From: a virus
Virus record (IMG/VR): IMGVR_UViG_3300026512_000061
Location: 1 to 23,412 of that record
Strand: one strand, 5' to 3'
Length of the DNA: 23,412 nucleotides
The translations under genes were made by a program, and so were the position numbers. The notes below the pieces were generated by a model. It did no database searches, had not been told where the DNA came from, and saw nothing but the letters and a program-made list of their open reading frames with translations. Positions 7,083-23,412 of this stretch are shown here, one piece after another (position 1 is the stretch's first letter; each line of letters begins with the position of its first letter).

Positions 7083-7083
7083 A

Positions 7084-7616: not shown

Positions 7617-7619
7617 GGG

Positions 7620-8624: not shown

Positions 8625-8625
8625 T

Positions 8626-9690: not shown

Positions 9691-9712
9691 TTTTAACTCC
9701 TTATTTTTATAG

Positions 9713-9740
9713 AAAAGGGTATAAGAAAATCTTATAGCCC
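9713..9740 (-). terminator. Terminator-like hairpin behind gene 32
   Basis: On the minus strand GGGCTATAAGA pairs with TCTTATACCC (10 pairs with one bulged C, TTT loop) and is followed by TTTTC. The stem includes the gp32 stop codon. The U-run is short and RNase H and primase genes downstream have no visible promoter of their own, so partial termination is likely. Confidence 0.5.
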
Positions 9741-10799: not shown

Positions 10800-10805
10800 A
10801 AAGAA

Positions 10806-11495
10806 TTAAAGCTCTTTTTTAATAGAAAGAATTAATTCAAATGGCTCATCAATATTTTTTAGATAAGCTATTGGATTGTTTGTTTTTGGATTTCTTTTTA
10901 TATATAATGCATATTCACCCTCAGGTATTTTGTTGATATTTAATATATCAAAAACAAACTTACTTTCTTCTTTTGAGTCAATATCTTTTTCATGATAATT
11001 TGGATTTTGATAATTATTATTTGCATCAAGTGTGGTTATTACTAATTTATTTTCAGACGTATCAATTACTAAATCACTATGTCCAAGAATGCTTGAAATT
11101 TTCTTGATATGCTTCAAATCTTCTTTTGATAAATCAAATTCAACAACTGAGTCGACTGACTTAACTTTATCAAATATATCAGGCTTTACTGAAAATTTTT
11201 CAAGCAAATTTATACTTGTGGTTTCATAAATTTGCTTTAATTTCCCATTATTAATAACAACATTTTCTCCATCTTTTTCTAAAAAGACATTTTCGCCGAA
11301 ATAATCCACGAGACTTAAAAATTGCGATAAATTATAAATTCCGAACTTTTCAAACTCTTCTTCACCTAATTCATTTAAATCTATAGACGCCAAAATAGAA
11401 TGATCTGTCGTCAAAACAGTCTTTGGATATTCTATAATAGCTGAATTAGAAATTTGAATTAATTTCTTTAAAATTGGTATAGTATTTTCTAACAT
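10806..11495 (-). CDS. 45: Sliding clamp, T4 gp45 type
   Basis: Trimeric ring that tethers the DNA polymerase and, in T4, activates late transcription. The 229-residue product (T4: 228) has the two-domain clamp pattern: an N-terminal helix ENTIPILKKLIQISN, strand-turn repeats including GIYNLSQFLSLVDYF, which matches the T4 AIYDLNGFLGILSLV segment, EFDLSKEDLKHIKKISSIL opening the second domain (T4: EIKAEDLQQLLRVSRGL), and KFVFDILNINKIPEGEYALYI near the end. It follows the 84-aa gene after 12 bases with AAAAAGGA before ATG. Clamp-loader genes 44 and 62 are not in the window. No promoter lies directly upstream; the one at 11791 serves it. Confidence 0.88.
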   Translation of the reverse strand: MLENTIPILKKLIQISNSAIIEYPKTVLTTDHSILASIDLNELGEEEFEKFGIYNLSQFLSLVDYFGENVFLEKDGENVVINNGKLKQIYETTSINLLEKFSVKPDIFDKVKSVDSVVEFDLSKEDLKHIKKISSILGHSDLVIDTSENKLVITTLDANNNYQNPNYHEKDIDSKEESKFVFDILNINKIPEGEYALYIKRNPKTNNPIAYLKNIDEPFELILSIKKEL

Positions 11496-11507
11496 AATTA
11501 TCCTTTT

Positions 11508-11762
11508 TTAGTTAATTGATTGAATATCAGCAAGTGTTTTTTCGAAGATATGCTCAACCATATTTTTTGCCACTCTTTTAGCTGTTCTTTTATCAGAACA
11601 AGTTTTCAAAGCATCTTCAGTAAATTTTCCTATATATTCTTTTTTTAAATCATCCAAATTATAGCTTTTAAAAACTTCTAATTTATCTTCACCTAAAATA
11701 GCAACCCTTGTATATACTTGAATATCTTCAGCAAGCTTATGTTGTAAATCTAATGAAACCAT
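11508..11762 (-). CDS. Hypothetical protein, 84 aa, upstream of the clamp gene
   Basis: Not recognised. A small mixed-charge, mostly helical protein with a basic C-terminal helix (DKRTAKRVAKNMVEHIFEK). It has a GGAGTTAAA ribosome binding site, is the first gene behind the promoter at 11791, and heads the clamp-SSB-RNase H-primase operon. By position it could be a small replication or transcription partner, but no T4 homologue is evident. Confidence 0.75.
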   Translation of the reverse strand: MVSLDLQHKLAEDIQVYTRVAILGEDKLEVFKSYNLDDLKKEYIGKFTEDALKTCSDKRTAKRVAKNMVEHIFEKTLADIQSIN

Positions 11763-11790
11763 TTTAACTCCTTAATTTTTTTATAATATA

Positions 11791-11819
11791 ATTATATAAT
11801 AATTTTTGAAAAAAGTAAA
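11791..11819 (-). promoter_or_regulatory. Promoter, TTTACT-N17-TATAAT, for the replication operon
   Basis: TTTACTTTT begins at 11819 on the minus strand and TATAAT is at 11791-11796, spacer 17. It would transcribe the 84-aa gene, gp45, gp32, RNase H and gp61 genes. Confidence 0.85.
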
Positions 11820-12080
11820 TCAAAAATAAAATTTTATTTCCAAAAAATTATAACCCTTTCCCATAAATGTTTCATCAACATAGATATCATCAATTTTTTT
11901 ACCAAATTTTTGAAAAACATCTTTGACAATTTCTTTTATTGCTTTTCTATCATAATCACTTAAAGGTGCAAATACAACAAAGGTTATTTCTTGTTCACCC
12001 AAATCTAATATTAAATTTTTAATATTGTATACATCACCCAATGTAATTGCTAGCACTTTTTCTAATTTTTTCTCATTCAT
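11820..12080 (-). CDS. Hypothetical protein, 86 aa
   Basis: Not recognised. The pattern of helix-strand-helix-strand (LEKVLAITLGDVYNI, EQEITFVVFAPLSDYD, RKAIKEIVKDVFQKFGKK, YNFLEIKFYF) suggests a small alpha/beta fold with two to three strands. AAGGAGTTAAA precedes the ATG. Its stop abuts the promoter for the next operon, so it is the last gene of the nucleotidyltransferase operon. Confidence 0.7.
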   Translation of the reverse strand: MNEKKLEKVLAITLGDVYNIKNLILDLGEQEITFVVFAPLSDYDRKAIKEIVKDVFQKFGKKIDDIYVDETFMGKGYNFLEIKFYF

Positions 12081-12089
12081 TTTAACTCC

Positions 12090-12131
12090 TTAAATTTTCC
12101 TGTTATTACAAACATTACATTTCATATTCAT
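12090..12131 (-). CDS. Possible 13-aa CxxC peptide
   Basis: A tiny frame (MNMKCNVCNNRKI) with AAAGG directly before its ATG, four bases after the nucleotidyltransferase stop. The upstream TTATTTTAAAATAAAGGA block and the MNM start match those of the HTH gene at 6758. It could be a remnant of a zinc-binding gene, a leader peptide, or chance. Confidence 0.18.
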   Translation of the reverse strand: MNMKCNVCNNRKI

Positions 12132-12134
12132 CCT

Positions 12135-12923
12135 TTATTTTAAAATAAGATTTTCAAATTCTGATCTTAATCTATTTGGATTCACGTTTTGAATCATATA
12201 TTCAAAATGTTTTCTTGCTTCAGCAAGAGTTTTATTTGACGGAGTAAATCCTTTTTGCGTAAGTTTATATACTCTTAAAACCCTCATAGGATCTTCTATT
12301 ATTCTTTGATGTGGATTACCTTGAAATTGAAACATCCTTTTTGAAGCATTTTCAATACCACTCTTATCAAGTTTGTCTTCAATTTCCATTTTTTGGATAC
12401 TAAAATAAATACAATTTACATCAAAGTCTCTTCTTTCCCAATCTTGTTTTAATGTCCCAGGCTTAAAACCACTATTATCTTTATCACTTCTTAAATTTGC
12501 TATTTCAAAATTTTCACCATTAATATTTACAAGAATTACACCAAAATGAGCACCAACTTCTTGAAACTCAATATTGTGTCTTTTTAATTGCTCTTTAACT
12601 TTTTGAACATTATCAACTACTAAATCAACGTCTTTTGGATCAAATCCGGCAATAACATCTCGTATAAAACCACCCACAATCCAAACTTTAGCTTTTGGAA
12701 CAATCAAATCCAAAAGTTCTAAAAGATTATAATTTGTTTTAATTTTTAATTTAATTTCTGAATTAAAATGCCAAAATAAATCAATTTTTTCTTGAATATG
12801 TTTTGGAAGATATCTTTTAGTCATAGTCAGAATTTCTTCATCTAAAAGATGTTGTAGATGTTCCCATTCTTCGCCTGTGTGCTTTCTTTTTTGAATTTCT
12901 TTTTCTATTGCATTATAAACCAT
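12135..12923 (-). CDS. Shortened CCA-adding/poly(A)-polymerase-like nucleotidyltransferase
   Basis: Class II nucleotidyltransferases add CCA or A tails to RNA 3' ends. After a helical N-terminal extension of about 70 residues, this 262-residue protein shows VWIVGGFIRDV (GG 84-85, R88), DPKDVDLVV with the metal-binding D98-x-D100, WERRDFDVNCIYF (162-174) and IIEDPMRVLRVYKL (208-221). These are the head and neck motifs of the family. Bacterial CCA enzymes are near 400 residues; the body and tail that grip tRNA are mostly missing here. Either the tRNA is held by the unusual N-terminal extension or a different RNA end is the substrate. It is the first gene behind the promoter at 12951, next to the RlaP gene, in keeping with RNA repair. 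Confidence 0.85.
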   Translation of the reverse strand: MVYNAIEKEIQKRKHTGEEWEHLQHLLDEEILTMTKRYLPKHIQEKIDLFWHFNSEIKLKIKTNYNLLELLDLIVPKAKVWIVGGFIRDVIAGFDPKDVDLVVDNVQKVKEQLKRHNIEFQEVGAHFGVILVNINGENFEIANLRSDKDNSGFKPGTLKQDWERRDFDVNCIYFSIQKMEIEDKLDKSGIENASKRMFQFQGNPHQRIIEDPMRVLRVYKLTQKGFTPSNKTLAEARKHFEYMIQNVNPNRLRSEFENLILK

Positions 12924-12950
12924 TTTAACTCCTCAACTTTTCTTATAGTA

Positions 12951-12979
12951 ATTATAATATAATTTTTAAGAAAGGTAAA
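12951..12979 (-). promoter_or_regulatory. Promoter, TTTACC-N17-TATAAT, for the nucleotidyltransferase gene
   Basis: TTTACCTTT begins at 12979 on the minus strand and TATAAT is at 12951-12956, spacer 17. It is the only one of the nine sites with TTTACC rather than TTTACT. Confidence 0.85.
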
Positions 12980-12982
12980 TAG

Positions 12983-13963
12983 TTAAAAAGAAAAATTACA
13001 AACATTTTTCTTAACTATTTTCATTAATAATTTTTCAATTTCATTCCAATTAGCTGTTTTAGGAAGTTTTTCTCTATCGTGTGCAACAAATCTTTCAAAT
13101 CTTTTTTCAGCTTCTTTTTGAAGTTCTTCTAAACTAAATTTTCCTTTTCTTACATCTAGCAAAAATTCTTTTTCTCTTACAGGAAATTCTAATTTCCCTT
13201 TTGAGATTAAATCTTCTCCTTCATTAAGAAGCCTAAATAAATGCATAAAAAATTTAGTATCATAACCATGCTTCTCCCATATTTTAGCTCTATGTGATGT
13301 CATCTGTAATTTTTCTTCAACCATTTTTTCTACTTTTTTAACAAAATAATTTAAAGGGAATGTTAAATTTTTTAGATAAATATTTTTATCATCAACTTTG
13401 TAACCATGTTTTTCTAAATCTACTCTAAATTCAGCAAGCGTTCTATCTGAATTAAATGTTAAAAGTGTGTTTTTAAATCCTTTAAGTTCAGATAAATTTT
13501 CAGCTTTTGAGATACCCTTTTTCATTTGCTGTCTTGCGTATCCTTGAAAGCTATCAAACACCCTTCTATTTATAAACAAATGGTAATTATTTTGAATTTC
13601 TTCAAATTCTGGTGTATTAAAAACAACAACATCTTTACCTTTAGCAAAAAGAAGCTCTACAATATTAGGATTTACATCACCAGCTAATTTTAAAAATTGC
13701 CTTAATTCATATACTTTAATATCAACTGCATCTTTAGTATTTTTTCCAGATTCATCTTTATCTTTTATGGAACAATCAATTTCTTTCACATTTTTAATCC
13801 CAATGTAATATTCAGGATTACCTAAAAATACCCCAACAAAATCTTCATCTGATTCAGGAGTATTTGTCCCATAGAGATGAGAACCTGTTTTTGTTAAAAA
13901 TAATAATTTTCCAAATTCTTGCAATTTTTCGTTTACTCTTTTTAATAATTCTTCTTTTACCAT
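12983..13963 (-). CDS. RlaP-type nucleotidyltransferase (polymerase beta superfamily)
   Basis: The 326-residue protein starts its core with TKTGSHLYGTNTPESDEDFV (residues 25-43; GS at 27-28, metal ligands D39 and D41). This is the signature of the RlaP/YcgL family (PF10127), whose name comes from its frequent link with RNA ligases in RNA-repair operons. The rest contains DIKVYELRQFLKLAGDVNPNIVELL, also typical of this family, then helical segments and a basic C-terminus. Biochemical function in the family is poorly known. The gene stands alone behind the promoter at 14090 and a structured leader, between the 2H phosphodiesterase and CCA-like genes, with Rnl2 nearby. AAAGGAG precedes the ATG. 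Confidence 0.82.
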   Translation of the reverse strand: MVKEELLKRVNEKLQEFGKLLFLTKTGSHLYGTNTPESDEDFVGVFLGNPEYYIGIKNVKEIDCSIKDKDESGKNTKDAVDIKVYELRQFLKLAGDVNPNIVELLFAKGKDVVVFNTPEFEEIQNNYHLFINRRVFDSFQGYARQQMKKGISKAENLSELKGFKNTLLTFNSDRTLAEFRVDLEKHGYKVDDKNIYLKNLTFPLNYFVKKVEKMVEEKLQMTSHRAKIWEKHGYDTKFFMHLFRLLNEGEDLISKGKLEFPVREKEFLLDVRKGKFSLEELQKEAEKRFERFVAHDREKLPKTANWNEIEKLLMKIVKKNVCNFSF

Positions 13964-13976
13964 TCTAACTCCTTTT

Positions 13977-14078
13977 AATTCACTTATCTGAGCCTCTCTA
14001 AGGAATAATCTTTTATTTTTAATATATAATTATTAAAATCACTTAAAAGCTCTTAGAGAGGCTCTAATAAATAAACTA
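13977..14078 (-). promoter_or_regulatory. Structured 5' leader with long conserved stem (copy 2)
   Basis: Minus-strand RNA pairs UUUAUUUAUU-A-GAGCCUCUCUAAG with CUUAGAGAGGCUC-A-GAUAAGUGAAUU. That is 13 inner pairs, one A-A mismatch at the same position as in copy 1, then about 13 outer pairs with G-U pairs, one of them (G-U for A-U) a structure-preserving difference from copy 1. The 57-nt unit between the nine-base arms differs from copy 1 in sequence but has nearly the same length, and holds an 8-bp hairpin (TTTTAATA/TATTAAAA). AAGGAG of the RlaP gene follows at once. Confidence 0.7.
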
Positions 14079-14089
14079 TTTATAGTATA

Positions 14090-14118
14090 ATTATAATATA
14101 ATTTTTTGCAAAAGTAAA
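14090..14118 (-). promoter_or_regulatory. Promoter, TTTACT-N17-TATAAT, for the RlaP-like gene
   Basis: TTTACTTTT begins at 14118 on the minus strand, TATAAT is at 14090-14095, spacer 17. The predicted start is only about 5-10 bases before the 5' arm of the leader stem. Its upstream half is part of a 32-base repeat shared with the promoter at 19796. Confidence 0.85.
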
Positions 14119-14141
14119 TAGTTTAAGGAAAATTTAAGAAT
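14110..14141 (-). repeat. 32-base direct repeat, copy 1 (promoter upstream half)
   Basis: Identical over 32 bases to 19816-19847. It covers the TTTACTTTT box and 23 bases upstream and, in this copy, also the last codons and stop of the 2H phosphodiesterase gene. Confidence 0.85.
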
Positions 14142-14634
14142 CTTCTTTATATTTATTTTCATCTATTTCTTCAAATCTTATCTTATCAAAAATTATTTTT
14201 AACCCTTTTAATTTTTTAAATAGATCTTCAGGACCAATATCTTCTGGCAAATCATAATATAATGTTAAATGCGGGATATATTTATCATAATCAAAGGAAG
14301 CTCCTTTTTTAATCCACTGATTAAACAATTCTTCACATTTAGGACATTCTAATATCAATACAAAACTTCTTCCATAATTTGGACTTTCAAAAATTGTCCA
14401 ATCTTTAACAACAGCTTCACAAGAATATGGAAGATCTTTCATATCTAAAATTTTTTTCTGAATTTCTACAGGCTTTTTAGAATAAACTATTGTTGTATGA
14501 TATTCATCATTAAAATCTTTCGGTTTTGGGAGTAATTCATCAATTTTTAATTCTGTTTTACTATCAACTAATACTGCACAATAGAGAGGAAGCTTAACTT
14601 TTTCAGATAATTCTTCAATAATTTCTTTTATCAT
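14134..14634 (-). CDS. 2H phosphodiesterase, Acb1-like (possible anti-CBASS nuclease)
   Basis: The 166-residue protein carries the two histidine motifs of 2H phosphoesterases: YHTTIVYS (H46, T48) and PHLTLYY (H122, T124). Enzymes of this fold cleave cyclic phosphodiester bonds. Among them, T4 gene 57B product Acb1 (about 150 residues, paired HxT motifs near 44 and 113) destroys cyclic oligonucleotide signals of CBASS defence. Size, motif spacing (76 against about 69) and the YS-x-x-PV context after the first motif fit Acb1. The alternative is a 2'-5' RNA ligase/cyclic phosphodiesterase acting with the nearby RNA ligase and nucleotidyltransferases in RNA repair. The 2H call is firm; the choice between these roles is inference. 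Confidence 0.8.
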   Translation of the reverse strand: MIKEIIEELSEKVKLPLYCAVLVDSKTELKIDELLPKPKDFNDEYHTTIVYSKKPVEIQKKILDMKDLPYSCEAVVKDWTIFESPNYGRSFVLILECPKCEELFNQWIKKGASFDYDKYIPHLTLYYDLPEDIGPEDLFKKLKGLKIIFDKIRFEEIDENKYKEDS

Positions 14635-14645
14635 TTTCTTGCCCT

Positions 14646-14831
14646 TTATAAATTTTCTTCTAATTTTTTGATTATTTCTTTTATTTTTTCATACTGTGTA
14701 TATTCATCTATTTCTTCTTCATCATTTAATGTAAGCATATAATAGATGTCAAGTTTTTCAGTCAAAACTCTTTTTGCCAAATCTTCTAAAGCGAAAAGGA
14801 CTAAATCCTTTTCAAATTTTGTAAATTTCAT
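14646..14831 (-). CDS. Hypothetical protein, 61 aa
   Basis: Not recognised. A small acidic helical protein: helix FEKDLVLFALEDLAKRVLTE, an acidic turn (NDEEEIDEYTQ) and helix YEKIKEIIKKLEE. It lies three bases after the YqeY-like gene and 11 before the 2H phosphodiesterase gene, so it belongs to the same operon. Similar small helical proteins are common in phage accessory regions. Confidence 0.65.
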   Translation of the reverse strand: MKFTKFEKDLVLFALEDLAKRVLTEKLDIYYMLTLNDEEEIDEYTQYEKIKEIIKKLEENL

Positions 14832-14834
14832 TTT

Positions 14835-15239
14835 TCAGCCTTTCATCATATCCTTTACAATTTGACTTGCTTCTTTCATATTGACTGGATGTTTTTTAAG
14901 TTCTTGCATAATTTGCCCAAAATTATAATTTTCTGCTAAGCACTTTTCTACAATTTCAATAATTTCATTTTTATCCAATTCTTTTGGAAGTATCTGCTTA
15001 GCTAGGTCTTTAACAAATTTTAATTCATCTTCAACTGGCATAAAATTTGCTCTTGCATCTTCGAGCTGTTTAAGATATTTTTTAATTCCTTTTTGAATAT
15101 GAACTTCTGATACTTTTTCATTTTTCTCTTTAGCTATTTTTTCTATTGTATCAATTATCATCATAAGTGAATTTGATTTTATTTTATTCTTTTCTTTTTT
15201 AGCTTTTAAAAGCTCTTTTTTAAGATTTTGTAATGTCAT
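14835..15239 (-). CDS. YqeY/GatB-like protein
   Basis: A 134-residue protein with the GatB/YqeY pattern: LKKELLKAKKEKNKIKSNSLMMI at the N-terminus, an EIVEKCLAE helix after ILPKELDKNEI (the LP-x-x-L-x-x-EI motif), and a C-terminal FGQIMQELKKHPVNMKEASQIVKDMM that matches the usual MG-x-VMK and ASQIVK segments. In GatB this domain contacts tRNA during amidation; the function of free YqeY proteins is not known. Placed beside RNA ligase and nucleotidyltransferases, a tRNA-related role is reasonable but unproved. AAAAGGAGA precedes the ATG. Confidence 0.8.
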   Translation of the reverse strand: MTLQNLKKELLKAKKEKNKIKSNSLMMIIDTIEKIAKEKNEKVSEVHIQKGIKKYLKQLEDARANFMPVEDELKFVKDLAKQILPKELDKNEIIEIVEKCLAENYNFGQIMQELKKHPVNMKEASQIVKDMMKG

Positions 15240-15251
15240 CTTATTCTCCTT

Positions 15252-15500
15252 TTATTTATAAATCAATTTATCATCATATCGTATTTCTCCACCATAATGG
15301 CTGTTTTGACCTAATTCTTCACCACAATTTTTACAAACATAAAAATAAAATGCATTTCCATTAATATTTTTCTCAATTTCATTTACTAAAGAATGAAAAG
15401 TTTCTGAAGAATATCCACATTTTTTACACATAATTTTTGAATATGATTCAGGTGGCAATGTAATCCACAATTTACCGTCTTTATCTTTTTTTATTACCAT
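15252..15500 (-). CDS. Small zinc-ribbon protein
   Basis: An 82-residue protein from the preferred ATG. Two knuckles, MCKKCG and VCKNCG, about 30 residues apart form a probable zinc ribbon. The start at 15500 overlaps the stop of the upstream gene as TAATG, which suggests translational coupling; TTG at 15512 or GTG at 15509 would add a few residues and lack a better ribosome binding site. The role is unknown; such ribbons bind nucleic acid or proteins. Confidence 0.7.
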   Translation of the reverse strand: MVIKKDKDGKLWITLPPESYSKIMCKKCGYSSETFHSLVNEIEKNINGNAFYFYVCKNCGEELGQNSHYGGEIRYDDKLIYK

Positions 15501-15832
15501 TACTTGCACCAATAAATTTTTGTTATATTTGGATATTCAGAAAGTAATGGAAGTCTATAACCCAATGTATGGACTTTACAAACTTTTTTACCCATCATTT
15601 CATTTTGTAAATCACTTGAATTAAATTTACCAATAAGCCACCTGTCAATATTTGAAAATACACCTTCTTTAGTAAAAACTTTATAACATGTGTATTCACC
15701 CGTAATATTTGAAACAGACTTAATATGGATAACTCTATCTTTTCCATTTGTGTAATGTAAAGGAATAGAGCCGATGCTTATAAACAAAATAAAAATTAAA
15801 ATTAAAATTAATTCTATATCTGCTTTTCTCAT
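15500..15832 (-). CDS. Membrane-anchored small protein (DUF1523-like pattern)
   Basis: The 110-residue product has one N-terminal hydrophobic helix (IELILILIFILFISIGSIPL, about 6-25) after a short basic start (MRKAD), then a predicted exported domain. The segment KFNSSDLQNEMMGKKV-CKV and LGYRLPLLSEYPNIT recalls small membrane-bound phage and bacterial proteins that share a KFNSSD and GWR-x-P-x-LS-x-YPNI pattern. The start forms a TAATG overlap with the RNA ligase stop and its AAGGA lies inside the ligase gene end. The function is unknown; an inner-membrane anchored periplasmic role is likely if the helix is uncleaved. Confidence 0.65.
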   Translation of the reverse strand: MRKADIELILILIFILFISIGSIPLHYTNGKDRVIHIKSVSNITGEYTCYKVFTKEGVFSNIDRWLIGKFNSSDLQNEMMGKKVCKVHTLGYRLPLLSEYPNITKIYWCK

Positions 15833-16845
15833 TATACTGTCCTTTTCATGAAATCTCTGATAAAATCTTGAGCTTGTTTTTGAGCATATCTTTGAATAAG
15901 TTTTTTAGAGCCTTTTTCAAGCTTTTCAAAATCAGGATTGTCTTTTTTGAAATCATCTAATGCATCTTGGAAAAATAAACCTGCAACTTTACCAAATTGT
16001 TTCCATTCAAGTTTAACATCTCCTTTACTTAAAAGATTTTGAATTCTATTTACTTCAAAATATCTGCTAATTTCATCCACCCACTTTCTTTCTTCATCAT
16101 TAAGATTTAAATTTTTAGTATTTTTTGGTTTTTTAATTCTACCTTTTTCTTTGAATTTATTGTTTTTATTTTTAAGAATTACCCTTTCGCCATTAGGAAA
16201 ATACTCTGTATTTATAGGCTTAATGACATTTCCTTCAGATATATTATTTTCTATAGGTTCTAAACCATACAATTCAGGAACTTTGGTTTGATATTCATTA
16301 GGAAAATTTAAACAATCAGTAAATGTTCCTCGAAAAAGTTCTGGAACCGTCTTAAAACCAAACATTTTTGAAAGTTCTTTCACTATATCCCAATCTAAAT
16401 AATAAGGTGTATTTTTATCCCAAATCATTATATCAAAAACAATAAAATCAGTAAATGGAATATAATGAACTTCTCTTTGAATTCTAGTATATCCCTTTTC
16501 AGTTTGATCATTATAAATTCCACCAAAGTGCTCACCAAAAATCTGTATTCTCGGAATATTATAAATGTTTTGAAGATAATTAGTTAATTTTAACACTTTA
16601 TCTTTATATTTTTCATACATAATATCAGCATCGAAAAATTTTTCAAGCTCTTCATTAGAAAGAATAGATGTTCTTTTAAAAGCTTGCACAATATTTCCAC
16701 CACAAATGAATCCAAAGTTAGATCCATGAACTTTCTCTGTAACAACCCATTCTATATCTTTATCTCCAAAACCATGCTGATAAATTCTTTCTATTTCTTT
16801 TTCTCTATAGGAATTTTCAATTGAATCATATTTTTTGAATTCCAT
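15832..16845 (-). CDS. rnlB: RNA ligase 2 family (T4 Rnl2-like)
   Basis: Seals nicks in double-stranded RNA through an adenylated lysine. The 337-residue protein (T4 Rnl2: 334) shows the nucleotidyltransferase motifs in order: I, TEKVHGSNFGF with the adenylated K38; III, QIFGEHFGG; IIIa, FIVFDIMIW; IV, SEGNVIKPI; V, ERVILKNKNNKF. A C-terminal helical domain follows, as in Rnl2. It is the first gene behind the promoter at 16870 and leads the operon ending with the 2H phosphodiesterase. Together with the RlaP and CCA-like genes it probably repairs RNAs cut by host defence nucleases. Confidence 0.92.
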   Translation of the reverse strand: MEFKKYDSIENSYREKEIERIYQHGFGDKDIEWVVTEKVHGSNFGFICGGNIVQAFKRTSILSNEELEKFFDADIMYEKYKDKVLKLTNYLQNIYNIPRIQIFGEHFGGIYNDQTEKGYTRIQREVHYIPFTDFIVFDIMIWDKNTPYYLDWDIVKELSKMFGFKTVPELFRGTFTDCLNFPNEYQTKVPELYGLEPIENNISEGNVIKPINTEYFPNGERVILKNKNNKFKEKGRIKKPKNTKNLNLNDEERKWVDEISRYFEVNRIQNLLSKGDVKLEWKQFGKVAGLFFQDALDDFKKDNPDFEKLEKGSKKLIQRYAQKQAQDFIRDFMKRTV

Positions 16846-16869
16846 TTTGACTCCTTTTTCTTTTATATA

Positions 16870-16898
16870 ATTATAATATATTTTCAGTCAAAAGTAAA
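16870..16898 (-). promoter_or_regulatory. Promoter, TTTACT-N17-TATAAT, for the RNA ligase operon
   Basis: TTTACTTTT begins at 16898 on the minus strand and TATAAT is at 16870-16875, spacer 17. The flanking 16899-17001 is very AT-rich with a TATATA run and no gene. Confidence 0.85.
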
Positions 16899-17001
16899 TA
16901 ATTTATATCTTTATACACATTTTATATATTATATATATATTTTACTGAAAAAATTCTATTTTCATCTCCAAAAAAGATTACAAGTATAAATATTATTAAA
17001 A

Positions 17002-17610
17002 CTAACCCAGCAAACATCTTCCATCCTTATCAAATCTAAGTATATTAACATAACTTTTAATATACATACCATCCTCATAGTTATCATCTTCTAAAAGGCA
17101 TATAGCATCTATATACTTTTTTCTCCACATATTACAACAGCTTATATTTGAAAATTCTTCTACCTTATTATATAAAGCTTTTTTAGTTATAAATTCCACA
17201 TTTCTATTTCCAAAATGTTTTTCTGCTAAAATAGAATAAAGCTCTTTCATTTTATCAGAAAATTGTTTATAATTATTTTTTGAATATATTATATAAACTT
17301 TATTAAAATGTTGTTTTGTATATAATTCACATAAATGATCTAATTCTTCTTCTAATTTCTTTTTTGTTTCCTCTAAGGTTTCTTTCATTGATATAATTAC
17401 ATCATCTTCTACTTTAGGAATAATTTCTAAATCATCATCAATTTGCTGTATTTTCTTTTTTATTTCTTTTATTTGTTTTTCTAATTTGATAATTTGTGGT
17501 GATTTTTTTAGGGGTTTCCTTGATTTTTTAATTGTCTTATAAATTTCTACAATTAAAAAATAAACACCTATTAAAAATCCTAAAACTATAAAACCAATTA
17601 AAAGACTCAT
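17002..17610 (-). CDS. Membrane-anchored coiled-coil protein, 202 aa
   Basis: Not recognised. It opens with a hydrophobic helix (about 3-24, LLIGFIVLGFLIGVYFLIVE), followed by a long charged coiled coil (about 27-98) and a compact C-terminal domain with several aromatic residues and CC in NISCCNMW. The layout suggests an inner-membrane anchor with a cytoplasmic domain. Its start overlaps the upstream coiled-coil gene by four bases (ATGA), so the two proteins are probably made together and may interact. Confidence 0.75.
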   Translation of the reverse strand: MSLLIGFIVLGFLIGVYFLIVEIYKTIKKSRKPLKKSPQIIKLEKQIKEIKKKIQQIDDDLEIIPKVEDDVIISMKETLEETKKKLEEELDHLCELYTKQHFNKVYIIYSKNNYKQFSDKMKELYSILAEKHFGNRNVEFITKKALYNKVEEFSNISCCNMWRKKYIDAICLLEDDNYEDGMYIKSYVNILRFDKDGRCLLG

Positions 17611-18320
17611 TTTTTCATTCCTTTAAGTTCTTCATTGAGATTTTCAAGTTTTTCAAAATAAAGCTTTTTAGCATCTGAATATTTCTTTTTAAGTTCAATA
17701 TTTCTTTGCTTCATTTGTTTGTGGTATTCAATATCAACGGAATTGATTATTTTTTGTGTTGAATCTGTAACCAAAGCATCAATAATTTTAGCATTTTGTT
17801 TTTCAAGCTTTTTTGAATAAACCTCTAATTCAATAACATTATCTATTAAAAGATTTAAAGCCTTTAATGATGTATTAATGGTTAATCTATTTTTTATAGT
17901 TCTTTCGATAAAAGGAAGAGCCTTTTCAAGTTTTGTTAATGTTGTTCCTATTAATTCAATTAAAATAGGAATTTGATTTGTCAACAACTCACTATTTTCA
18001 ACAAATTTTGTTCTCAAATTAACAAGCAATTCCATATCAACATTCGGATTTGATTCAATTTTATCAATCTGTTCTTGAATTTTATGATTTTCTTGCTTCA
18101 ATTCTACATTTAATTGCTCAAGAATTTGTTGATGTCCTATTAAATCATTTCTTTTTTGATACAAATAAGACAAAGCTACTTCTAAATCCTTAAATTCATT
18201 TTTAGGGAATATCTTATAAGCTAATTTTTTAATTAGTGTCCTATGAACAATTTTATCAAGATTAAGATTTATATCTTGAGCCGTTTTTTCTATTTCTGTT
18301 GATAATTTAGTGAATTCCAT
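17607..18320 (-). CDS. Coiled-coil protein, 237 aa
   Basis: A nearly all-helical, charged protein without cysteine or membrane segments. Heptad-like stretches span about 75-110 and 195-235. The middle (FIERTIKNRLTINTSLKALNL and the segment after it) faintly recalls TelA-like toxic-anion-resistance proteins, but this is too weak to name it. It is translationally coupled to the membrane-anchored coiled-coil gene downstream. No promoter of the common type is near; it belongs to the operon from 19796. Confidence 0.7.
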   Translation of the reverse strand: MEFTKLSTEIEKTAQDINLNLDKIVHRTLIKKLAYKIFPKNEFKDLEVALSYLYQKRNDLIGHQQILEQLNVELKQENHKIQEQIDKIESNPNVDMELLVNLRTKFVENSELLTNQIPILIELIGTTLTKLEKALPFIERTIKNRLTINTSLKALNLLIDNVIELEVYSKKLEKQNAKIIDALVTDSTQKIINSVDIEYHKQMKQRNIELKKKYSDAKKLYFEKLENLNEELKGMKK

Positions 18321-18356
18321 TTATTACTCCTTGCTATATTTCAACTCATTAATTTA

Positions 18357-18641
18357 CTATTTGTTCCTCTCAAATCTATTACAACCAAAATCTTCAGTTA
18401 CAAACATTCCATCTTCAGCAATAATAGAATTTTTTGGATTAACACACCAAAATTCATCTTCATATTGTCCTTTATGTTTCCACTTGCAATTCTTACAAAG
18501 CCTATTTTCAAAATCATTATAAATTTGACTAATTAATTCATCAACTTCCACTAAATCAACCAACTCTTTATTTGTTTCTATTTTTCCTGAATAACTTCTC
18601 ATTTTCTTATATAGAAAATTTGACGCTTCTTTTCTTGTCAT
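18357..18641 (-). CDS. Small cysteine-containing phage protein, 94 aa
   Basis: N-terminal helices are followed by CKNCKW (C49, C52), FWCVNP (C66) and EDFGCNRF (C87), a four-cysteine zinc-binding pattern common in small phage proteins of unknown function. AGGAG lies before the ATG. It is located in a string of accessory genes between two zinc-rich or membrane genes. Confidence 0.72.
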   Translation of the reverse strand: MTRKEASNFLYKKMRSYSGKIETNKELVDLVEVDELISQIYNDFENRLCKNCKWKHKGQYEDEFWCVNPKNSIIAEDGMFVTEDFGCNRFERNK

Positions 18642-18682
18642 TTTATTTTTCTCCTTTCAAATCATTCAGAGAAACTTAATTT

Positions 18683-18907
18683 TTACTTACACATAGGGCA
18701 ATATCCAAGTCCCTCTTCATCCTCAAATTCAACATAACCGCATGTTTCGCATACAAATGTAGCTTTAGCATATCTTCCTTCACCTTCACATTTTATAAAA
18801 GAATTTATTTCTCCAGCACCGTCACACTCAAGACATTTTACTATGCCTTGGTATTTTTTTCCGTAAACTTCATAAATTCCCTTTCCTCCGCAATGTATGC
18901 AAACCAT
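18683..18907 (-). CDS. DnaJ-type zinc-finger protein, 74 aa
   Basis: The small protein consists almost wholly of zinc knuckles: CIHCGGKG (C3, C6) and CLECDGAG (C25, C28) match the CxxCxGxG repeats of DnaJ, and CETCG (C53, C56) with CPMC (C70, C73) form a second site. There is no J domain. Such stand-alone fingers may bind unfolded proteins or nucleic acid. It lies two bases after the 205-aa gene and has AAGGAG before its ATG. Confidence 0.75.
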   Translation of the reverse strand: MVCIHCGGKGIYEVYGKKYQGIVKCLECDGAGEINSFIKCEGEGRYAKATFVCETCGYVEFEDEEGLGYCPMCK

Positions 18908-18909
18908 TT

Positions 18910-19527
18910 TTATTCTCCTTCTAAATCAAATCTACCTGAATTTAAAATATCACAAATCTTCTGAGCATCTTCCTCTGTTCTAAAATAAACATCAAATGTT
19001 CGACCCACTGCGTCTCCTGTAGTGAAATAATTTTTGTCAACAATATCAAAAGAAATCCTCCATTTTCGCTCTCTGCTTCGTTCAAACACAAAACCTCTAC
19101 TATTGGGGCATTCTTGGTCCCTTAAAGCTAATAATCTTGTATATCTTTTTATTTGTCTTAATGCAATTTCTGCTGTCCCTCTATCGTTCCTAAATAAACC
19201 ATTCTCATTGGTATAATCACTTATTCTTGCGTCCTTAAACTCTTCGTCATCATCAACATCATTATCATTTAAACAAATTAGAAATTTATTTTCTTTTAAT
19301 TCAATCTTAGACTTTTCTGGGGTTTCAAATTTAACTTCATCACGGAAAAGAGTTTGATTAGAGCAGTTATTAGGTTTTCCGTCAAAGGTAAAATTATCAA
19401 ATTTACCATTTAAAAATTTAACAGAAAAAGTAGGAATTAGTCTATACTTTATTTTAGTCACAACTCCCCATCCAAATCTAATATCCCATACGCTATCACC
19501 TACTTTAAATCTATCAAGATAAGCCAT
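18910..19527 (-). CDS. Accessory protein with duplicated VWD-GWG domain, 205 aa
   Basis: The N-terminal 75 residues (MAYLDRFKVGDSVWDIRFGWG to NQTLFRDEVKF) are paralogous to the whole neighbouring 75-aa protein. The fold looks like a small SH3-like or KOW-like beta barrel (GDSVWDI-x-x-GWG-x-V). The C-terminal part has WRISFDIVDKNYF and FDVYFRTEEDAQKICDILN, a phage accessory pattern often seen at the end of such proteins. The function is unknown. The ribosome binding site is AAAGGAGA. Confidence 0.7.
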   Translation of the reverse strand: MAYLDRFKVGDSVWDIRFGWGVVTKIKYRLIPTFSVKFLNGKFDNFTFDGKPNNCSNQTLFRDEVKFETPEKSKIELKENKFLICLNDNDVDDDEEFKDARISDYTNENGLFRNDRGTAEIALRQIKRYTRLLALRDQECPNSRGFVFERSRERKWRISFDIVDKNYFTTGDAVGRTFDVYFRTEEDAQKICDILNSGRFDLEGE

Positions 19528-19538
19528 TTTAATCTCCT

Positions 19539-19766
19539 TTAATTATATTTTCTTTTAGGGGCTTTAAATTTAACTTCGTCCCAAAACAATGTTTGGTTTA
19601 ACTCTTTATGCGTTTTTCCTTCAAAGTTGTAAAAAACTCTGTATTCGTCAATTAAGTCATATCGAACTTTAAATCCTATGCCCAAATCAACTTCAAAACA
19701 CGTTCCCCATCCATATTCTAAACTCCAAACTTTATTGCCTTCTTTAATTCCGTCAAAATAAGCCAT
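19539..19766 (-). CDS. Small VWD-GWG domain protein, 75 aa (paralogue of next gene)
   Basis: MAYFDGIKEGNKVWSLEYGWG through NQTLFWDEVKFKAPK shares its plan with the N-terminal domain of the 205-aa protein 12 bases downstream, so the pair arose by tandem duplication of the domain. It is predicted to be a small beta protein of unknown role. It is the first gene behind the promoter at 19796 and has AAAGGAGTTAAA before its ATG. Confidence 0.75.
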   Translation of the reverse strand: MAYFDGIKEGNKVWSLEYGWGTCFEVDLGIGFKVRYDLIDEYRVFYNFEGKTHKELNQTLFWDEVKFKAPKRKYN

Positions 19767-19795
19767 TTTAACTCCTTTGTTGTTTTTATAAACTA

Positions 19796-19824
19796 ATTAT
19801 ATAATAAATTTCAAGAAAAGTAAA
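19796..19824 (-). promoter_or_regulatory. Promoter, TTTACT-N17-TATAAT, for the accessory operon
   Basis: TTTACTTTT begins at 19824 on the minus strand and TATAAT is at 19796-19801, spacer 17. It would serve the genes from 19766 down to about 17002. Confidence 0.85.
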
Positions 19825-19847
19825 TAGTTTAAGGAAAATTTAAGAAT
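19816..19847 (-). repeat. 32-base direct repeat, copy 2 (promoter upstream half)
   Basis: Identical to 14110-14141. Here it is wholly intergenic, between the promoter box and the stop of the 120-aa gene. Confidence 0.85.
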
Positions 19848-19855
19848 TATTAAAT

Positions 19856-20218
19856 CTAAACTCCCATTTCTAATTTTTGCCATTCTATAAATAGTTTAAT
19901 ATCCCATCTAAAGCTTTCGATGTTCTTTAAGTGTTTTTCTAAATAATCAAGTTCATTTTCAAGCTCTTTTAATTTATATTTTAGTTCAATATATTCTTTA
20001 TCTCTTTCAATAAAATCTTTTATTTCATTCTGTTTAAGTGTCATAGGAAAATCATTCTTATAATAAAGATATCTTTCTGTCCAAAGAGAATCAAGCTCTT
20101 TTGAAACCTTTATCAATTCATAACGTTTGTGTTTAATCTCTCTTAAAACTTTTTCATATTCATTAGCTATATCTTTTAATTTATCTTTTATATTAGTATT
20201 ATTTAGAGTAAAATCCAT
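19856..20218 (-). CDS. Coiled-coil protein, 120 aa
   Basis: Not recognised. Almost entirely charged helix: heptad-like runs at about 10-50 and 70-105 with an aromatic spacer (SLWTERYLYYKNDF). There are no cysteine, membrane or catalytic motifs. It starts two bases after the methyltransferase stop and ends with TAG; it is the last gene of the uvsW-methyltransferase operon. Confidence 0.7.
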   Translation of the reverse strand: MDFTLNNTNIKDKLKDIANEYEKVLREIKHKRYELIKVSKELDSLWTERYLYYKNDFPMTLKQNEIKDFIERDKEYIELKYKLKELENELDYLEKHLKNIESFRWDIKLFIEWQKLEMGV

Positions 20219-20220: not shown

Positions 20221-21042
20221 TTAATCCTTTAATATATTAACAAGTATTTCAATAATTTTATTTTTAGATTTTTGTTTTTTCATAATATATATATTATCTC
20301 CATAAAAATTACCATATCCGCCTTTAAGTTGTCTGTAATAATTCAAATTATAATTTTTAGCATCTTTTCCTTTAGTTTCTCCATAATCTTTAATAATATG
20401 TTGTTTTAGAATATATCCTTTTTTCAAAACAATATATTTTAATAATTCACCAAGTTCTATTTCTTCAGAATTTTTATATAAATTCCCACAACATAAAATA
20501 AAATAGCCATCTTTTTCAACATGTTTATCAACATTATCTACTACTTCTTTCCACCATTTTAAAAATTCTTTTAATGTTTGTTTATTACTTCCATCATTAT
20601 CTTTATTAGTATATTTTACTATATCCCAGTATGGCGGATGTGCTAAAACCATTTTTACCTTTGTTCCAGGATTAAAAATTCTTGTATCAGCCTTTACAAT
20701 AAAATCTCTTTTTGGCTCTAAATCGTTTATAATGCATTTTCTTCCTAAATAAGTTGCAACATCATAATCAATTCCGCTTCCACCAAATATACTCCAAATT
20801 ATATCATTCTTTTTAGTAAAACGCATAATCATCTGATATGGTATTTCTTTTATCCAAATACCGTGATGTCCTTGAATAATTTCCTTTGGTGGTTCTGGAA
20901 TTTCAGGTCTTTTAGGAATTTTCCAATGACCGAATATTGGATTATCGCTTAATGTTGTCAACCATCGGGCATTTGTTGTAATATCTCCAATATATTGTCT
21001 CCAATTTTCTAAATCTAAATCGCAGTGTTTAGGCATTTTCAT
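20221..21042 (-). CDS. DNA methyltransferase (N4-cytosine/N6-adenine type)
   Basis: Transfers a methyl group from S-adenosylmethionine to a base amino group. The 273-residue protein has motif I-like IFGGSGIDYDVATYLGRK (85-102; G87, G88, G90) followed by INDLEP with the acidic residue that binds the cofactor ribose, and catalytic motif IV as LAHPPYWD (133-140), with HPPY in place of the common (D/N/S)PP(Y/W). Motif I precedes motif IV. No restriction enzyme gene is adjacent, so it is an orphan methyltransferase that could protect phage DNA from restriction or mark it. It begins one base after the uvsW fragment stop. Confidence 0.85.
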   Translation of the reverse strand: MKMPKHCDLDLENWRQYIGDITTNARWLTTLSDNPIFGHWKIPKRPEIPEPPKEIIQGHHGIWIKEIPYQMIMRFTKKNDIIWSIFGGSGIDYDVATYLGRKCIINDLEPKRDFIVKADTRIFNPGTKVKMVLAHPPYWDIVKYTNKDNDGSNKQTLKEFLKWWKEVVDNVDKHVEKDGYFILCCGNLYKNSEEIELGELLKYIVLKKGYILKQHIIKDYGETKGKDAKNYNLNYYRQLKGGYGNFYGDNIYIMKKQKSKNKIIEILVNILKD

Positions 21043-21043: not shown

Positions 21044-22633
21044 TTAATCTCCTATTTGTAATTCTTTTTCTATGATAGGATAAGCATTTTCTAAATAAAG
21101 ATTTATTCTCTCATCAGCGTGTTTTAATATATAATTTTTCTTTCTTCTACAACTTGTAAAATCATCTACATAATCAAAAATTTTAACTTTATCCTTTGAA
21201 TCATGCTGTCGCATACCCCTACCAATACTCTGATTAAGAGTAATAAAAGACTTAATGCTTGAAGCTAAATGAATGTTGTGTATTTTCTTAATATTAACAC
21301 CAGTGGATAACGTTCCGTATGTTGCTATTAATATTCCTCCATCTTTTAATTCAAACATTTTTCTAATCTCTTCTCTTTTATCTCCCTTAACATCGCCTCT
21401 AATAAAAAATATGTTCAAATCATCTAACATAATTATTTTATCATATTTTATATTATTTTTTATAAGATCTTTTGACTGGACAATATAGTATTTTGAATTG
21501 TCTTTAATAGACTTAATTTCTTTTTTATAAACTAAATCTTCATTAGGAATATCTAAATTTAATTTTAATTTAATTATTTCTTTTAATAATGTTTCACCAT
21601 GTGCTATTTTATTATAAAGAATTAGGTTATTTTCTTTTTTATTTGAAAGCTTATTTACTATTTTGGATATAAAAATATTTCTAACATTTAATTCTTCAAT
21701 ATATTTTACTTCTTGTTGGTAAGTTTTACTAACTTGCCAAAACTCTTTACAAATTTCTTTGCTATAATTCAAGAAAAACATCACAATTTCTACAGGTGTG
21801 GCGTATCCTTGATTAATAAGTTCTTGTGGTGTTATGATTGTAATCGGCTTACCTAATGTTGAAAGAAGTGTAAATTTGTCTATGGTATTTTGAGGAAGTG
21901 TCCCTGTTAAACCTATTTTGTATTCAGCATTTACGGATGCTTTTATTATTTTATCCAATACTTCAGCTTTCGCAGAATGTGCTTCATCAATTATAATAAA
22001 ATCAGTTTCTGGAAATAAATGGATGGCATTTTTCATACTCTGCCAGGTAGAGATTGTAACCAATTTATTAAAATGTTTTTCTTTTCCTGAATAAATTTTA
22101 TGAACATATTTATCTAAATCTTTCCACCCATATTCATTAAAATCACTATACATCTGTTCCACAAGATTTACTGTTGGAACAATTAAAACACCCTTTAAAT
22201 TTTTTGATATGAAATATCTAATGATTGCATATAAAACAAAACTTTTACCTGAATTATGATGAACTATATCATTTTGGACATAACATTCTTCTTCAATATC
22301 AACATTAAAATCAATCCATTCCTGTTTTTTTACATTTTCAATCGAAACAATTTTTTTAGTATTAGATAAATCACCTTTTAATATCTCATTCCCCATCTTC
22401 AAGTTTGAAGAAGACTCCCAAATTAATTTATTTTCATCTTTTTTTAACAAAAAATGTGTAATAGAACATTTTATTGATGAACCATCATCAAATATAATTT
22501 TTTTACCATCCAAGTCTTTTTTAATAAAATAATCATTTATTTTTCTAAAACCAAAGGGTGTTTCAATTTTTATCTTTTTTCCTTGTTTTAATAATTCAAA
22601 TATTTCGCCAAAAGTTTTTTCTTCTATTTTCAT
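21044..22633 (-). CDS. uvsW: C-terminal half of UvsW-type helicase fused to a split-intein C-part
   Basis: UvsW is the T4 SF2 helicase that unwinds branched DNA and R-loops. The 529-residue product starts with a 127-residue intein C-part, then an extein from S128 beginning inside Walker A (SGKS, 128-131). Next come VLIVPTVNLVEQM (motif Ia), VTISTWQSM, DEAH (216-219), GLTGT (motif III, 241-245), ATYGTLSTGVNI, ASSIKSFITLNQSIGRGMR (motif VI, 468-475) and a C-terminal LKHADERINLYLE matching the T4 LKHGIDRIQRYAD. The N-terminal domain and first half of Walker A are missing and should be encoded beyond 23412 with the intein N-part. About 50 residues (359-407) are inserted relative to T4. ATG at 22633 has AGGAGT upstream and a promoter at 22663, supporting a separate transcription unit. 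Confidence 0.9.
   Translation of the reverse strand: MKIEEKTFGEIFELLKQGKKIKIETPFGFRKINDYFIKKDLDGKKIIFDDGSSIKCSITHFLLKKDENKLIWESSSNLKMGNEILKGDLSNTKKIVSIENVKKQEWIDFNVDIEEECYVQNDIVHHNSGKSFVLYAIIRYFISKNLKGVLIVPTVNLVEQMYSDFNEYGWKDLDKYVHKIYSGKEKHFNKLVTISTWQSMKNAIHLFPETDFIIIDEAHSAKAEVLDKIIKASVNAEYKIGLTGTLPQNTIDKFTLLSTLGKPITIITPQELINQGYATPVEIVMFFLNYSKEICKEFWQVSKTYQQEVKYIEELNVRNIFISKIVNKLSNKKENNLILYNKIAHGETLLKEIIKLKLNLDIPNEDLVYKKEIKSIKDNSKYYIVQSKDLIKNNIKYDKIIMLDDLNIFFIRGDVKGDKREEIRKMFELKDGGILIATYGTLSTGVNIKKIHNIHLASSIKSFITLNQSIGRGMRQHDSKDKVKIFDYVDDFTSCRRKKNYILKHADERINLYLENAYPIIEKELQIGD
22253..22633 (-). other. Split intein C-terminal part (atypical split), residues 1-127 of the uvsW fragment
   Basis: The segment has Hint-domain features. 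IETPFGFRKIND and KIIFDDGSSIKCSITH are core strands ending in the block B histidine (H60). The end is ECYVQNDIVHHN followed by S128, matching intein block G (penultimate His126, terminal Asn127, +1 Ser). A C-part of about 127 residues leaves only a short N-part of perhaps 20-30 residues with the first cysteine. Common split inteins have a C-part of 35-50 residues; this arrangement resembles the known AceL-TerL type, whose C-part of about 104 residues also has a (T/S)P-x-GF and IIFDD pattern. It would splice in trans onto Walker A of UvsW. Confidence 0.88.
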
Positions 22634-22662: not shown

Positions 22663-22691
22663 ATTATATAATATTTATAAGGAAAAGTAAA
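22663..22691 (-). promoter_or_regulatory. Promoter, TTTACT-N17-TATAAT, for the split uvsW fragment
   Basis: TTTACTTTT begins at 22691 on the minus strand and TATAAT is at 22663-22668, spacer 17. Its -35 box touches the plus-strand endonuclease start codon at 22691 and its spacer contains that gene's AAGGA ribosome binding site. Confidence 0.85.
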
Positions 22692-23412
22692 TGAAAATTC
22701 GAAAAAGCACTCTAGAAAAATTAAAATTGAAATCAGAAGAATTAAAAATAAATTATAATATCTTAATTAAATTAAGAGAATATTTTGGTTCTTTTAATTT
22801 TTTGACAAAATTAATGAATATAAAGAAATCATATAATAAATATGATAAAAATAAAAAATTTCCAAATTCATTTGAAGAATTAAAAATATTTTTAGAAAAA
22901 ATATATGAATTTAGAAATAATAATGACGCTAAAATAAATTTAGAATACTTTTTACTTATAGGTTTATCAGAAAAAGAATATAAAAAATATTGTTCAGCTA
23001 AAACAAAAAAGATGATAGAAATGCCTACTTTTACAAATACGCTAGAAGAATATAATGAAAAATATGGTGAAGAAGAGGGTAGAAAAAGATATGAGAAAAG
23101 AAGAAAAGATTGCGGAAAATCTGTAAGATTAGAATATTGGCTTGAAAGAGGCTATACTGAAGAAGAGGCTAAACAAAAATTAAAAGAAAGACAAGCCACA
23201 GGCAAACTTGAAAATTTTATGAAAAGATATGGACCAGTTCAAGGATATATAAAATGGTATAAAAGACAAAAAAAGTGGCAAAATACATTAAATTCTAAAT
23301 CACCTGAGGAGATAGAAGAAATCAATAAAAAGAGAAATCCATATTTAAAATATGATTATGAAACAAAAGAAGAATATTTTAATAGAGCAAGAAATTATAT
23401 AATAAATAATAA
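22691..23412 (+). CDS. Homing-endonuclease-like protein, 3' end beyond window
   Basis: The only plus-strand gene. Its 240 visible codons run open to the window end. ATG at 22691 has AAGGA eight bases upstream. The N-terminal 110 residues are lysine-rich helices. Then come two tandem YG-x-x-x-G units: KYGEEEGRKRYEKRR and, after YWLERGYTEEEAKQKL-x-x-RQ, RYGPVQGYIKWYKRQKKWQNTL. This YW-x-x-(K/R)GY-x-EEA / RYG-x-x-xG-x-x-xW pattern is familiar from free-standing phage homing endonucleases, including Vsr/EDxHD-type enzymes found next to split inteins and introns. The catalytic domain should lie downstream of the window, so nuclease identity is inferred. It sits in the break of the split uvsW gene, where it would drive copying of the insertion into intact alleles. 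Confidence 0.72.
   Translation, partial: MKIRKSTLEKLKLKSEELKINYNILIKLREYFGSFNFLTKLMNIKKSYNKYDKNKKFPNSFEELKIFLEKIYEFRNNNDAKINLEYFLLIGLSEKEYKKYCSAKTKKMIEMPTFTNTLEEYNEKYGEEEGRKRYEKRRKDCGKSVRLEYWLERGYTEEEAKQKLKERQATGKLENFMKRYGPVQGYIKWYKRQKKWQNTLNSKSPEEIEEINKKRNPYLKYDYETKEEYFNRARNYIINN

What the first reader, a model, noticed from the sequence alone, without database searches (positions are those of the whole stretch)
21044..22633. Fractured uvsW helicase with an atypically split intein inside Walker A
The reading frame starts with a Hint-like segment ending NDIVHHN followed by SGKS, so the intein C-part is joined at the second half of the ATP-binding loop. Its 127-residue length means the split is near the intein N-terminus, as in the rare AceL-TerL class, not at the usual endonuclease position. 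The fragment has its own promoter and ribosome binding site, and the helicase N-terminus is absent upstream. A helicase needed for recombination-dependent replication would be active only after protein trans-splicing. I do not know of a described UvsW case with this split.
Basis: partly seen in the sequence, partly recalled or inferred. Interest (0 to 1): 0.85.

Follow-up and report, generated by a model that had tools for sequence, protein, structure and literature searches.

The report
Phage repair helicase cut by split-intein
A virus of bacteria makes its UvsW-type DNA helicase in two pieces that a self-cutting protein element is expected to weld together in the middle of the enzyme's ATP-binding loop; one of the two welding tags is only 14 amino acids long, one shorter than the shortest natural one I found described.

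Summary
Window 21044-22633(-) encodes the 127-residue C-part of an intein followed by the UvsW helicase from SGKS onward; the I_C is predicted to fold as an intein (best hit VidaL, TM 0.77).

The N-part is missing only because the contig stops inside an antisense endonuclease gene (22691-23410+). Contig L004 overlaps that end by 12 nt, completes the endonuclease (407 aa joined) and carries the UvsW N-part ending SATG|CLDKNEKIRVIVED-stop. L001 (C-part 86% identical) has both halves 23 nt apart, without endonuclease. L005 has an intact, intein-free gene.

So the intein N-part is 14 residues; the papers I read in passages give 15 as the shortest characterised. The split fits the VidaL/PolB16 position, not AceL-TerL. 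The separate promoter is not above chance.

It belongs to a wider set. Of 80 related I_C loci (best 80 of 106; the query included the P-loop flank), 53 are split, 18 continuous, 9 unresolved, mostly UvsX. A second UvsW lineage (L096) also has a 14-residue I_N; its relative L097 has a continuous intein.

Splicing is inferred, not tested. Verdict: new member of a known kind, with a record-short N-intein if it splices.

The parts
22253..22633 (-). Intein C-part (I_C), 127 residues, own ATG; ends His126-Asn127
21047..22252 (-). C-extein: UvsW helicase from the second half of Walker A (SGKS) to the C-terminus (residues 128-529; stop at 21044-21046)
   Evidence: Pfam ResIII/DEAD/Helicase_C; PHROG DNA helicase; alignment to intact homologue L005, which matches T4 UvsW 2oca at E 2.3e-57
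22241..22252 (-). SGKS, second half of Walker A; Ser128 is the +1 residue
22639..22643 (-). AGGAG ribosome-binding site of the C-part gene, by eye; also present in L001
22634..22690 (.). 57-nt spacer between the divergent C-part and endonuclease genes; promoter-like match 22663-22691(-) and TATAAATA 22672-22679(-), neither kind above chance in number
22691..23410 (+). First 240 residues of an antisense homing endonuclease gene, open at the contig end; completed on L004 5443-5955(-) to 407 aa

Best explanation
The uvsW gene of this T4-related phage is fractured. One gene, on the contig L004 that overlaps the window's end, makes the UvsW N-domain up to SATG followed by a 14-residue intein N-part (Cys1 ... 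Asp14). The window gene makes a 127-residue intein C-part followed by SGKS and the rest of the helicase. The two intein parts should associate into one Hint fold, splice through Cys1, Ser+1 and the C-terminal Asn, and leave a continuous SATG-SGKS Walker A. An endonuclease gene sits between the halves in opposite orientation and would have spread the split intein into uvsW genes that lack it. Shown here: both halves and their junctions, the predicted fold of I_C, the splicing residues, low dN/dS, and intact, continuous and endonuclease-free alleles in relatives. Inferred: that L004 and the window are one genome or near-identical ones (well supported), that splicing happens, that the helicase needs it, and that the endonuclease homes.
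For: N-part directly upstream of the C-part in L001 (C-part 86% identical), 23 nt apart and out of frame. L004 carries the N-part and the tail of the endonuclease; its last 12 bases equal the first 12 of the window's minus strand, a 12-mer found once in the window and at 0 of 344 other locus ends (a rough control, as most of those ends are cut flanks, not contig ends); the joined endonuclease stays in frame (407 aa), and one homologue, from L139, aligns from residue 137 to 380 across the junction at 240. L005 has the same gene intact with SATSSGKS. His60, Asp108, His126 and Asn127 are invariant in 6 of 6 rows of A3 and in 29 of 29 chosen rows of A4 (many A4 rows came from a scan with an HN-containing pattern, so His126-Asn127 is partly built in there). 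VidaL is the top PDB hit. dN/dS is 0.138 for I_C, 0.086 for helicase C, 0.104 for the N-part. Records G001 (109 kb) and G002 (64 kb) show no intact copy.
Against: No splicing was tested. The window's genome was not seen as one contig: the link to L004 rests on a 12-nt A+T-rich overlap plus frame and homology. All records may be fragments, so an intact second uvsW elsewhere cannot be excluded. The sequence match of I_C to solved inteins is modest by phmmer (6dsl E 1.2e-4, VidaL E 6.4e-4), and Pfam's Intein_splicing model stays below its cut-off (13.2 against 35.8 bits).
Confidence: 0.93

Rival explanations
1. The intein is dead: the two halves are decayed pieces, and the phage either lacks UvsW or assembles the halves without a covalent bond, as reported for split NrdA of phage Aeh1 and split gene 43 of phage 25.
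For: Split phage enzymes that work without splicing are in print (passage of PMC2988022). Splicing was not tested here.
Against: dN/dS is low in I_C and in both helicase parts; splicing residues are kept; the break lies inside the P-loop, where non-covalent repair is hard to picture (inference).
Confidence: 0.05
2. The split is an assembly or sequencing error that hides a continuous (cis) intein.
For: A continuous intein at the same site exists in L097, and 18 of 80 related I_C loci are continuous.
Against: The same stop and restart are in L001 and, for the N-part, L004, separate records at 86-87% identity to each other or to the window; in L001 the halves are out of frame, with stops in all three frames of the stretch translated around the junction; an endonuclease gene lies between the halves here.
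Confidence: 0.01
3. The halves are joined at RNA level by an intron, not by an intein.
For: Endonucleases accompany introns in T4-like phages (established knowledge; PMC2988022 passages).
Against: In L001 only 23 nt separate the halves, too short for a self-splicing intron; the C-part has its own ATG and ribosome-binding site; I_C is predicted to fold as an intein. No intron search was run.
Confidence: 0.01

Closest known systems
VidaL split intein (PDB 6vgv, 6vgw)
   Same: Best fold match (TM 0.77, Z 16.3); aligns nearly end to end, including the SGK after the junction; early split; short I_N (16 aa per passages of PMC13014065).
   Different: About 26% identity; I_N is 14 aa here. VidaL's I_C looks most like the UvsX-type I_C of phage PA5oct (read side by side, not scored). 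I recall, unverified, that a 'VidaL T4Lh-1' intein in a T4-like helicase was listed in the literature.
PolB16 OarG split intein
   Same: Atypically split near the N-terminus, I_N 15 aa, called the shortest characterised (abstract and passages of PMC10189870); PMC13014065 puts its split after the second strand.
   Different: PolB-type polymerase gene and Ser1/Ser+1 chemistry; here Cys1/Ser+1 in a helicase P-loop and 14 aa.
AceL-TerL / GOS-TerL / Cat atypical split inteins
   Same: Short I_N, long I_C. Consensus Cat I_C (6dsl) is the top phmmer hit.
   Different: AceL-TerL and GOS-TerL are split after the first helix; I_N 25 aa for AceL-TerL (passages of PMC13014065).
P-loop split inteins in other phage ATPases (PA5oct UvsX, LR756500 PhoH-like by eye, IMG/VR loci L098-L173)
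   Same: Same I_C family, P-loop insertion, N-part / endonuclease / C-part order where an endonuclease is present, related endonuclease.
   Different: Other host genes; I_N 15 or 16 in 36 of 53 split loci; the endonuclease lies on the coding strand in each case parsed, but antisense here.
Fractured genes with split inteins and a new endonuclease family (Dassa et al. 2009; recalled, not held)
   Same: Split intein halves with a free-standing endonuclease gene between them (recalled).
   Different: Early split site here; the paper could not be read, so the endonuclease family could not be compared.

Membership tests
Atypically (early) split inteins of the VidaL kind | Short I_N (15-37 residues in print) on a separate gene, I_C carrying the rest of the Hint fold | tested here: met
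   I_N 14 residues in L001 and L004, one below the printed range; I_C 127 residues with a predicted intein fold
Atypically (early) split inteins of the VidaL kind | Split directly after the second beta strand | tested here: inconclusive
   The model I_C starts with a short strand and helix 8-16, and its residue 1 maps to VidaL residue 20, which fits; I_N and I_C were not modelled together
Class 1 splicing-competent intein | Nucleophile at position 1, block B His, penultimate His, C-terminal Asn, Ser/Thr/Cys at +1 | tested here: met
   Cys1 in L001 and L004; His60, His126, Asn127, Ser128 in the window
Class 1 splicing-competent intein | Actually splices in trans | not testable with these tools
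   Needs co-expression
T4 UvsW helicase family | UvsW N-domain plus SF2 helicase domains, sequence match to T4 UvsW | tested here: met
   L001 N-part hits UvsW_N at 33.8 bits (cut-off 25.3); window C-part hits ResIII/DEAD/Helicase_C; intact homologue L005 matches 2oca at E 2.3e-57, though its own UvsW_N score is just under the cut-off (24.8)
Homing endonuclease of the fractured-gene kind | Free-standing endonuclease between the halves, related to those of other fractured loci | tested here: met
   Joined protein matches 19 of 23 ORFs taken from other fractured loci at E <= 1e-3, best L103 3e-29 and L105 3e-27; PHROG homing endonuclease E 4.7e-4 for the tail; no Pfam family above cut-off
Homing endonuclease of the fractured-gene kind | Cuts the intein-free allele | not testable with these tools
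   Needs a cleavage assay on an L005-type allele

The most novel reading that the evidence does not exclude
UvsW carries the shortest natural N-intein, 14 residues, seen in two separate helicase lineages. In this phage the antisense endonuclease puts the two halves under separate transcripts, so that helicase activity becomes a two-input (AND) switch over recombination-dependent replication rather than just tolerated parasitism.
Probability: 0.15. Interest if true: 0.8.

Novelty: new member of a known kind. Interest (0 to 1): 0.55.

Why it matters
A 14-residue natural N-intein would be the shortest known and directly useful for attaching synthetic peptides to proteins. The alleles found here (intein-free L005; continuous L097; split without endonuclease L001 and L096; split with co-directional endonuclease L105, and L103 where its frame looks broken; split with antisense endonuclease in the window plus L004) lay out plausible steps by which a mobile intein becomes a fractured gene. 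They also place one intein family in the P-loop of several different phage ATPases.

Tried and rejected
The endonuclease tail alone (L004 5443-5955, no alignment) folded badly (pLDDT 41.5) and was not used; its nuclease fold is open, resting on weak PHROG hits. A close-relative scan of viral contigs with the window half of the endonuclease found no locus. One genome-contig scan gave a single distant helicase (Streptococcus record, 22% identity). Promoter and late-promoter motif counts were not above chance. The AceL-TerL position, intron joining and assembly error were considered and set aside as described.

Limits of the counts. (83 of 84 UvsW loci with an ordinary P-loop, the other being L001) is biased towards intact genes, because the 80 loci were ranked by E-value to an intact query. 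The I_C scan used a profile that held the P-loop flank, and one of its two patterns contained HN plus that flank, so P-loop insertions are favoured by construction. In one search my loose pattern also listed false I_N tails of 8-10 residues out of P-loop context; one search repeats the count with the context required (53 split, 18 continuous, 9 unresolved, of 80). Many of these rows are near-duplicates. A4 is 29 rows that I chose. For endonuclease orientation, one search took the longest ORF between the halves in 18 of the 32 loci whose halves lie more than 900 nt apart; one (L161) was only 163 aa; L009, L010, L012, L014, L103 and L105 were read from ORF lists. The tree holds one in four of the other intact rows. 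Dassa 2009 and the VidaL paper are not held; what I say of them beyond PMC13014065 and PMC10189870 is recalled.

Full report
What is there. The window is a 23412-base virus record, probably a fragment. The ORF 21044-22633 on the minus strand is 529 aa. Residues 1-127 end in VHHN and residue 128 begins SGKSF. Pfam finds ResIII, DEAD and Helicase_C at and after about residue 128. The first 127 residues are predicted to fold as an intein: AlphaFold mean pLDDT 88.9; Foldseek best hit VidaL 6vgv (E 2.6e-6, TM 0.77), and the 50 rows displayed are inteins or related autoprocessing (hedgehog, BIL) domains; VIA-align Z 16.3 over 123 residues. By sequence alone the match is weaker: phmmer gives VidaL E 6.4e-4 when the SGKS flank is included and 0.026 without it. 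A profile of 13 UvsX-type I_C parts scores the window I_C at 61.5 bits, against 9.2 for the best of 1000 shuffles (not fully independent, since the UvsX rows came from a scan with a profile that included the window).

Where the N-part is. L001 (109-kb virus contig, C-part 86% identical) has the N-part just upstream: helicase N-domain ...ILISATG, then CLDKNEKIRVIIED and a stop, 23 nt before the C-part start and out of frame. Pfam UvsW_N hits that N-part with 33.8 bits against a cut-off of 25.3. L004 (end of a 64-kb contig) has ...LVSATG, CLDKNEKIRVIVED, stop, then the tail of an antisense endonuclease running off the contig end. The last 12 bases of L004 are the first 12 of the window's minus strand. 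That 12-mer occurs once in the window and at 0 of 344 other locus ends; most of those ends are cut flanks, so this is a rough control. The joined endonuclease is 407 aa in frame. The endonuclease of L139 aligns to it from residue 137 to 380, across the junction at 240, and the two pieces also hit it separately. The long matches of window bases 1-20000 are collinear with G001 71.7-90.1 kb, whereas the L004 record (G002) shows only matches of up to about 190 bases, repeats among them, and no C-part. L004 and the window are therefore most likely adjacent parts of one genome or of near-identical ones; this is inference.

No intact copy was found. A search with the intact L005 helicase found only the two halves in G001 and only the N-part in G002, and the window holds only the C-part. 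These may all be fragments, so absence is not proof.

Selection. Between window/L004 and L001, dN/dS is 0.138 for I_C, 0.086 for the helicase C-part and 0.104 for the N-part. At silent third positions the intein (I_N plus I_C) differs at 20 of 116 sites and the flanks at 130 of 446 (Fisher p 0.0095); none of 396 overlapping extein stretches of 141 codons is as low. That fits a more recent spread of the intein than of its host gene, but local codon effects are not excluded.

Family context. A profile scan with six I_C sequences found 106 relatives in viral contigs, of which the best 80 were returned. The profile held the P-loop flank, and one of its two patterns contained HN and that flank, so P-loop insertions are favoured by construction. 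With a P-loop context required for the N-part, 53 of 80 are split with an N-part found, 18 are continuous and 9 unresolved. I_N lengths run from 14 to 33: 14 in 2 of 53 (L095, which is L001 again, and L096, both UvsW), 15 in 26 and 16 in 10. Of the 53, 32 have the halves more than 900 nt apart, room for an endonuclease gene, and 21 less than 300 nt. Most are UvsX, judged by reading the flanks. Many rows are near-duplicates, so the counts are not independent events. A second UvsW lineage, L096, is split at the same site with a 14-residue I_N, and its relative L097 has a continuous intein there. L103 and L105 have the same site with a 26-residue I_N and an endonuclease gene between; that of L103 has stops in its frame. 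L009 and L010 have a helicase split three residues further on, in GK|T, with I_N 31. In a tree of 31 helicase C-parts the three site-a lineages sit apart, with intact genes between them; several branches are long or open and intact rows were thinned, so I read this only as compatible with several gains or losses.

Endonuclease. The joined window/L004 protein matches 19 of 23 ORFs taken from other fractured loci, mostly through its middle region. The nuclease ends seem to differ: a sub-threshold T5orf172 hit in L105 (GIY-YIG type, recalled) and weak PHROG homing-endonuclease and resolvase hits for the L004 tail. In the 18 loci parsed, and in L009, L010, L012, L014, L103 and L105, the ORF between the halves lies on the coding strand. 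Here it is antisense, overlapping the last codons of I_N on L004. The C-part would then need its own transcript or read-through; its ribosome-binding site is clear, but promoter counts are not above chance.

What is known. I saw the abstract and passages of PMC10189870 and passages of PMC13014065. They give a natural I_N range of 15-37 residues, PolB16 OarG at 15 as the shortest characterised, VidaL at 16 and AceL-TerL at 25, and place VidaL and PolB16 at the split site after the second strand. The searches showed in their listings no paper describing a split intein in uvsW. Of the 7 papers holding both intein and uvsW I read passages of two: PMC3322345, a Campylobacter phage with inteins in other genes, and PMC2988022; the other five were seen as listing only. 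The library is open-licence papers, so this is not proof of novelty. From memory, unverified, a VidaL T4Lh-1 intein in a T4-like helicase was named in the literature.

Verdict. It is a member of a known kind of split intein, in a host gene I did not find described, with a record-short I_N if splicing is shown.

Noticed in passing
window 14134-14634 (-): Protein matching Pfam Acb1, an anti-CBASS protein (66 bits, cut-off 27).
   Followed up: partly
window 5311-5778 (-); L005 2959-3423: Phage-encoded GGDEF (diguanylate cyclase-type) domain with the GGDEF letters present, also in the relative L005.
   Followed up: partly
window 20221-21042 (-): DNA methylase gene (N6_N4_Mtase) between the uvsW C-part and the 120-aa gene that directly follows the C-part in L001 and uvsW in L005.
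   Followed up: no
window 7575-7617, 11778-11820, 12938-12980, 14077-14119, 16857-16899, 19783-19825: Six copies of a 43-nt A+T-rich repeat, mostly in gaps between ORFs, with related stretches scattered through the L001 and L004 records; possibly a promoter cassette.
   Followed up: partly
window 12983-13963 and 15832-16845 (-): RNA repair genes: RlaP-type nucleotidyltransferase and T4 RNA ligase 2-type ligase.
   Followed up: no
L103 3974-5326 and 5366-6319: The L103 uvsW C-part ORF ends early in a segment that looks intein-like by eye, followed by another endonuclease-like gene, so this uvsW may be broken twice.
   Followed up: no
L096 3377-5434 and L097 468-2366: Split and continuous forms of the same UvsW intein in close relatives, a pair suited to study how a split arises.
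   Followed up: partly
L108, L128, L131, L139, L140, L170, L172, L173: Early-split inteins in P-loops of phage ATPases that look AAA+-like or PhoH-like by eye, I_N 18-26.
   Followed up: no
L126, ORF from about 1982: A 703-aa ORF in which an I_N-like stretch with nuclease-like letters after it seems to run on in frame to the I_C; it may be a continuous intein with a nuclease inside at the split site (by eye; counted as unresolved).
   Followed up: no
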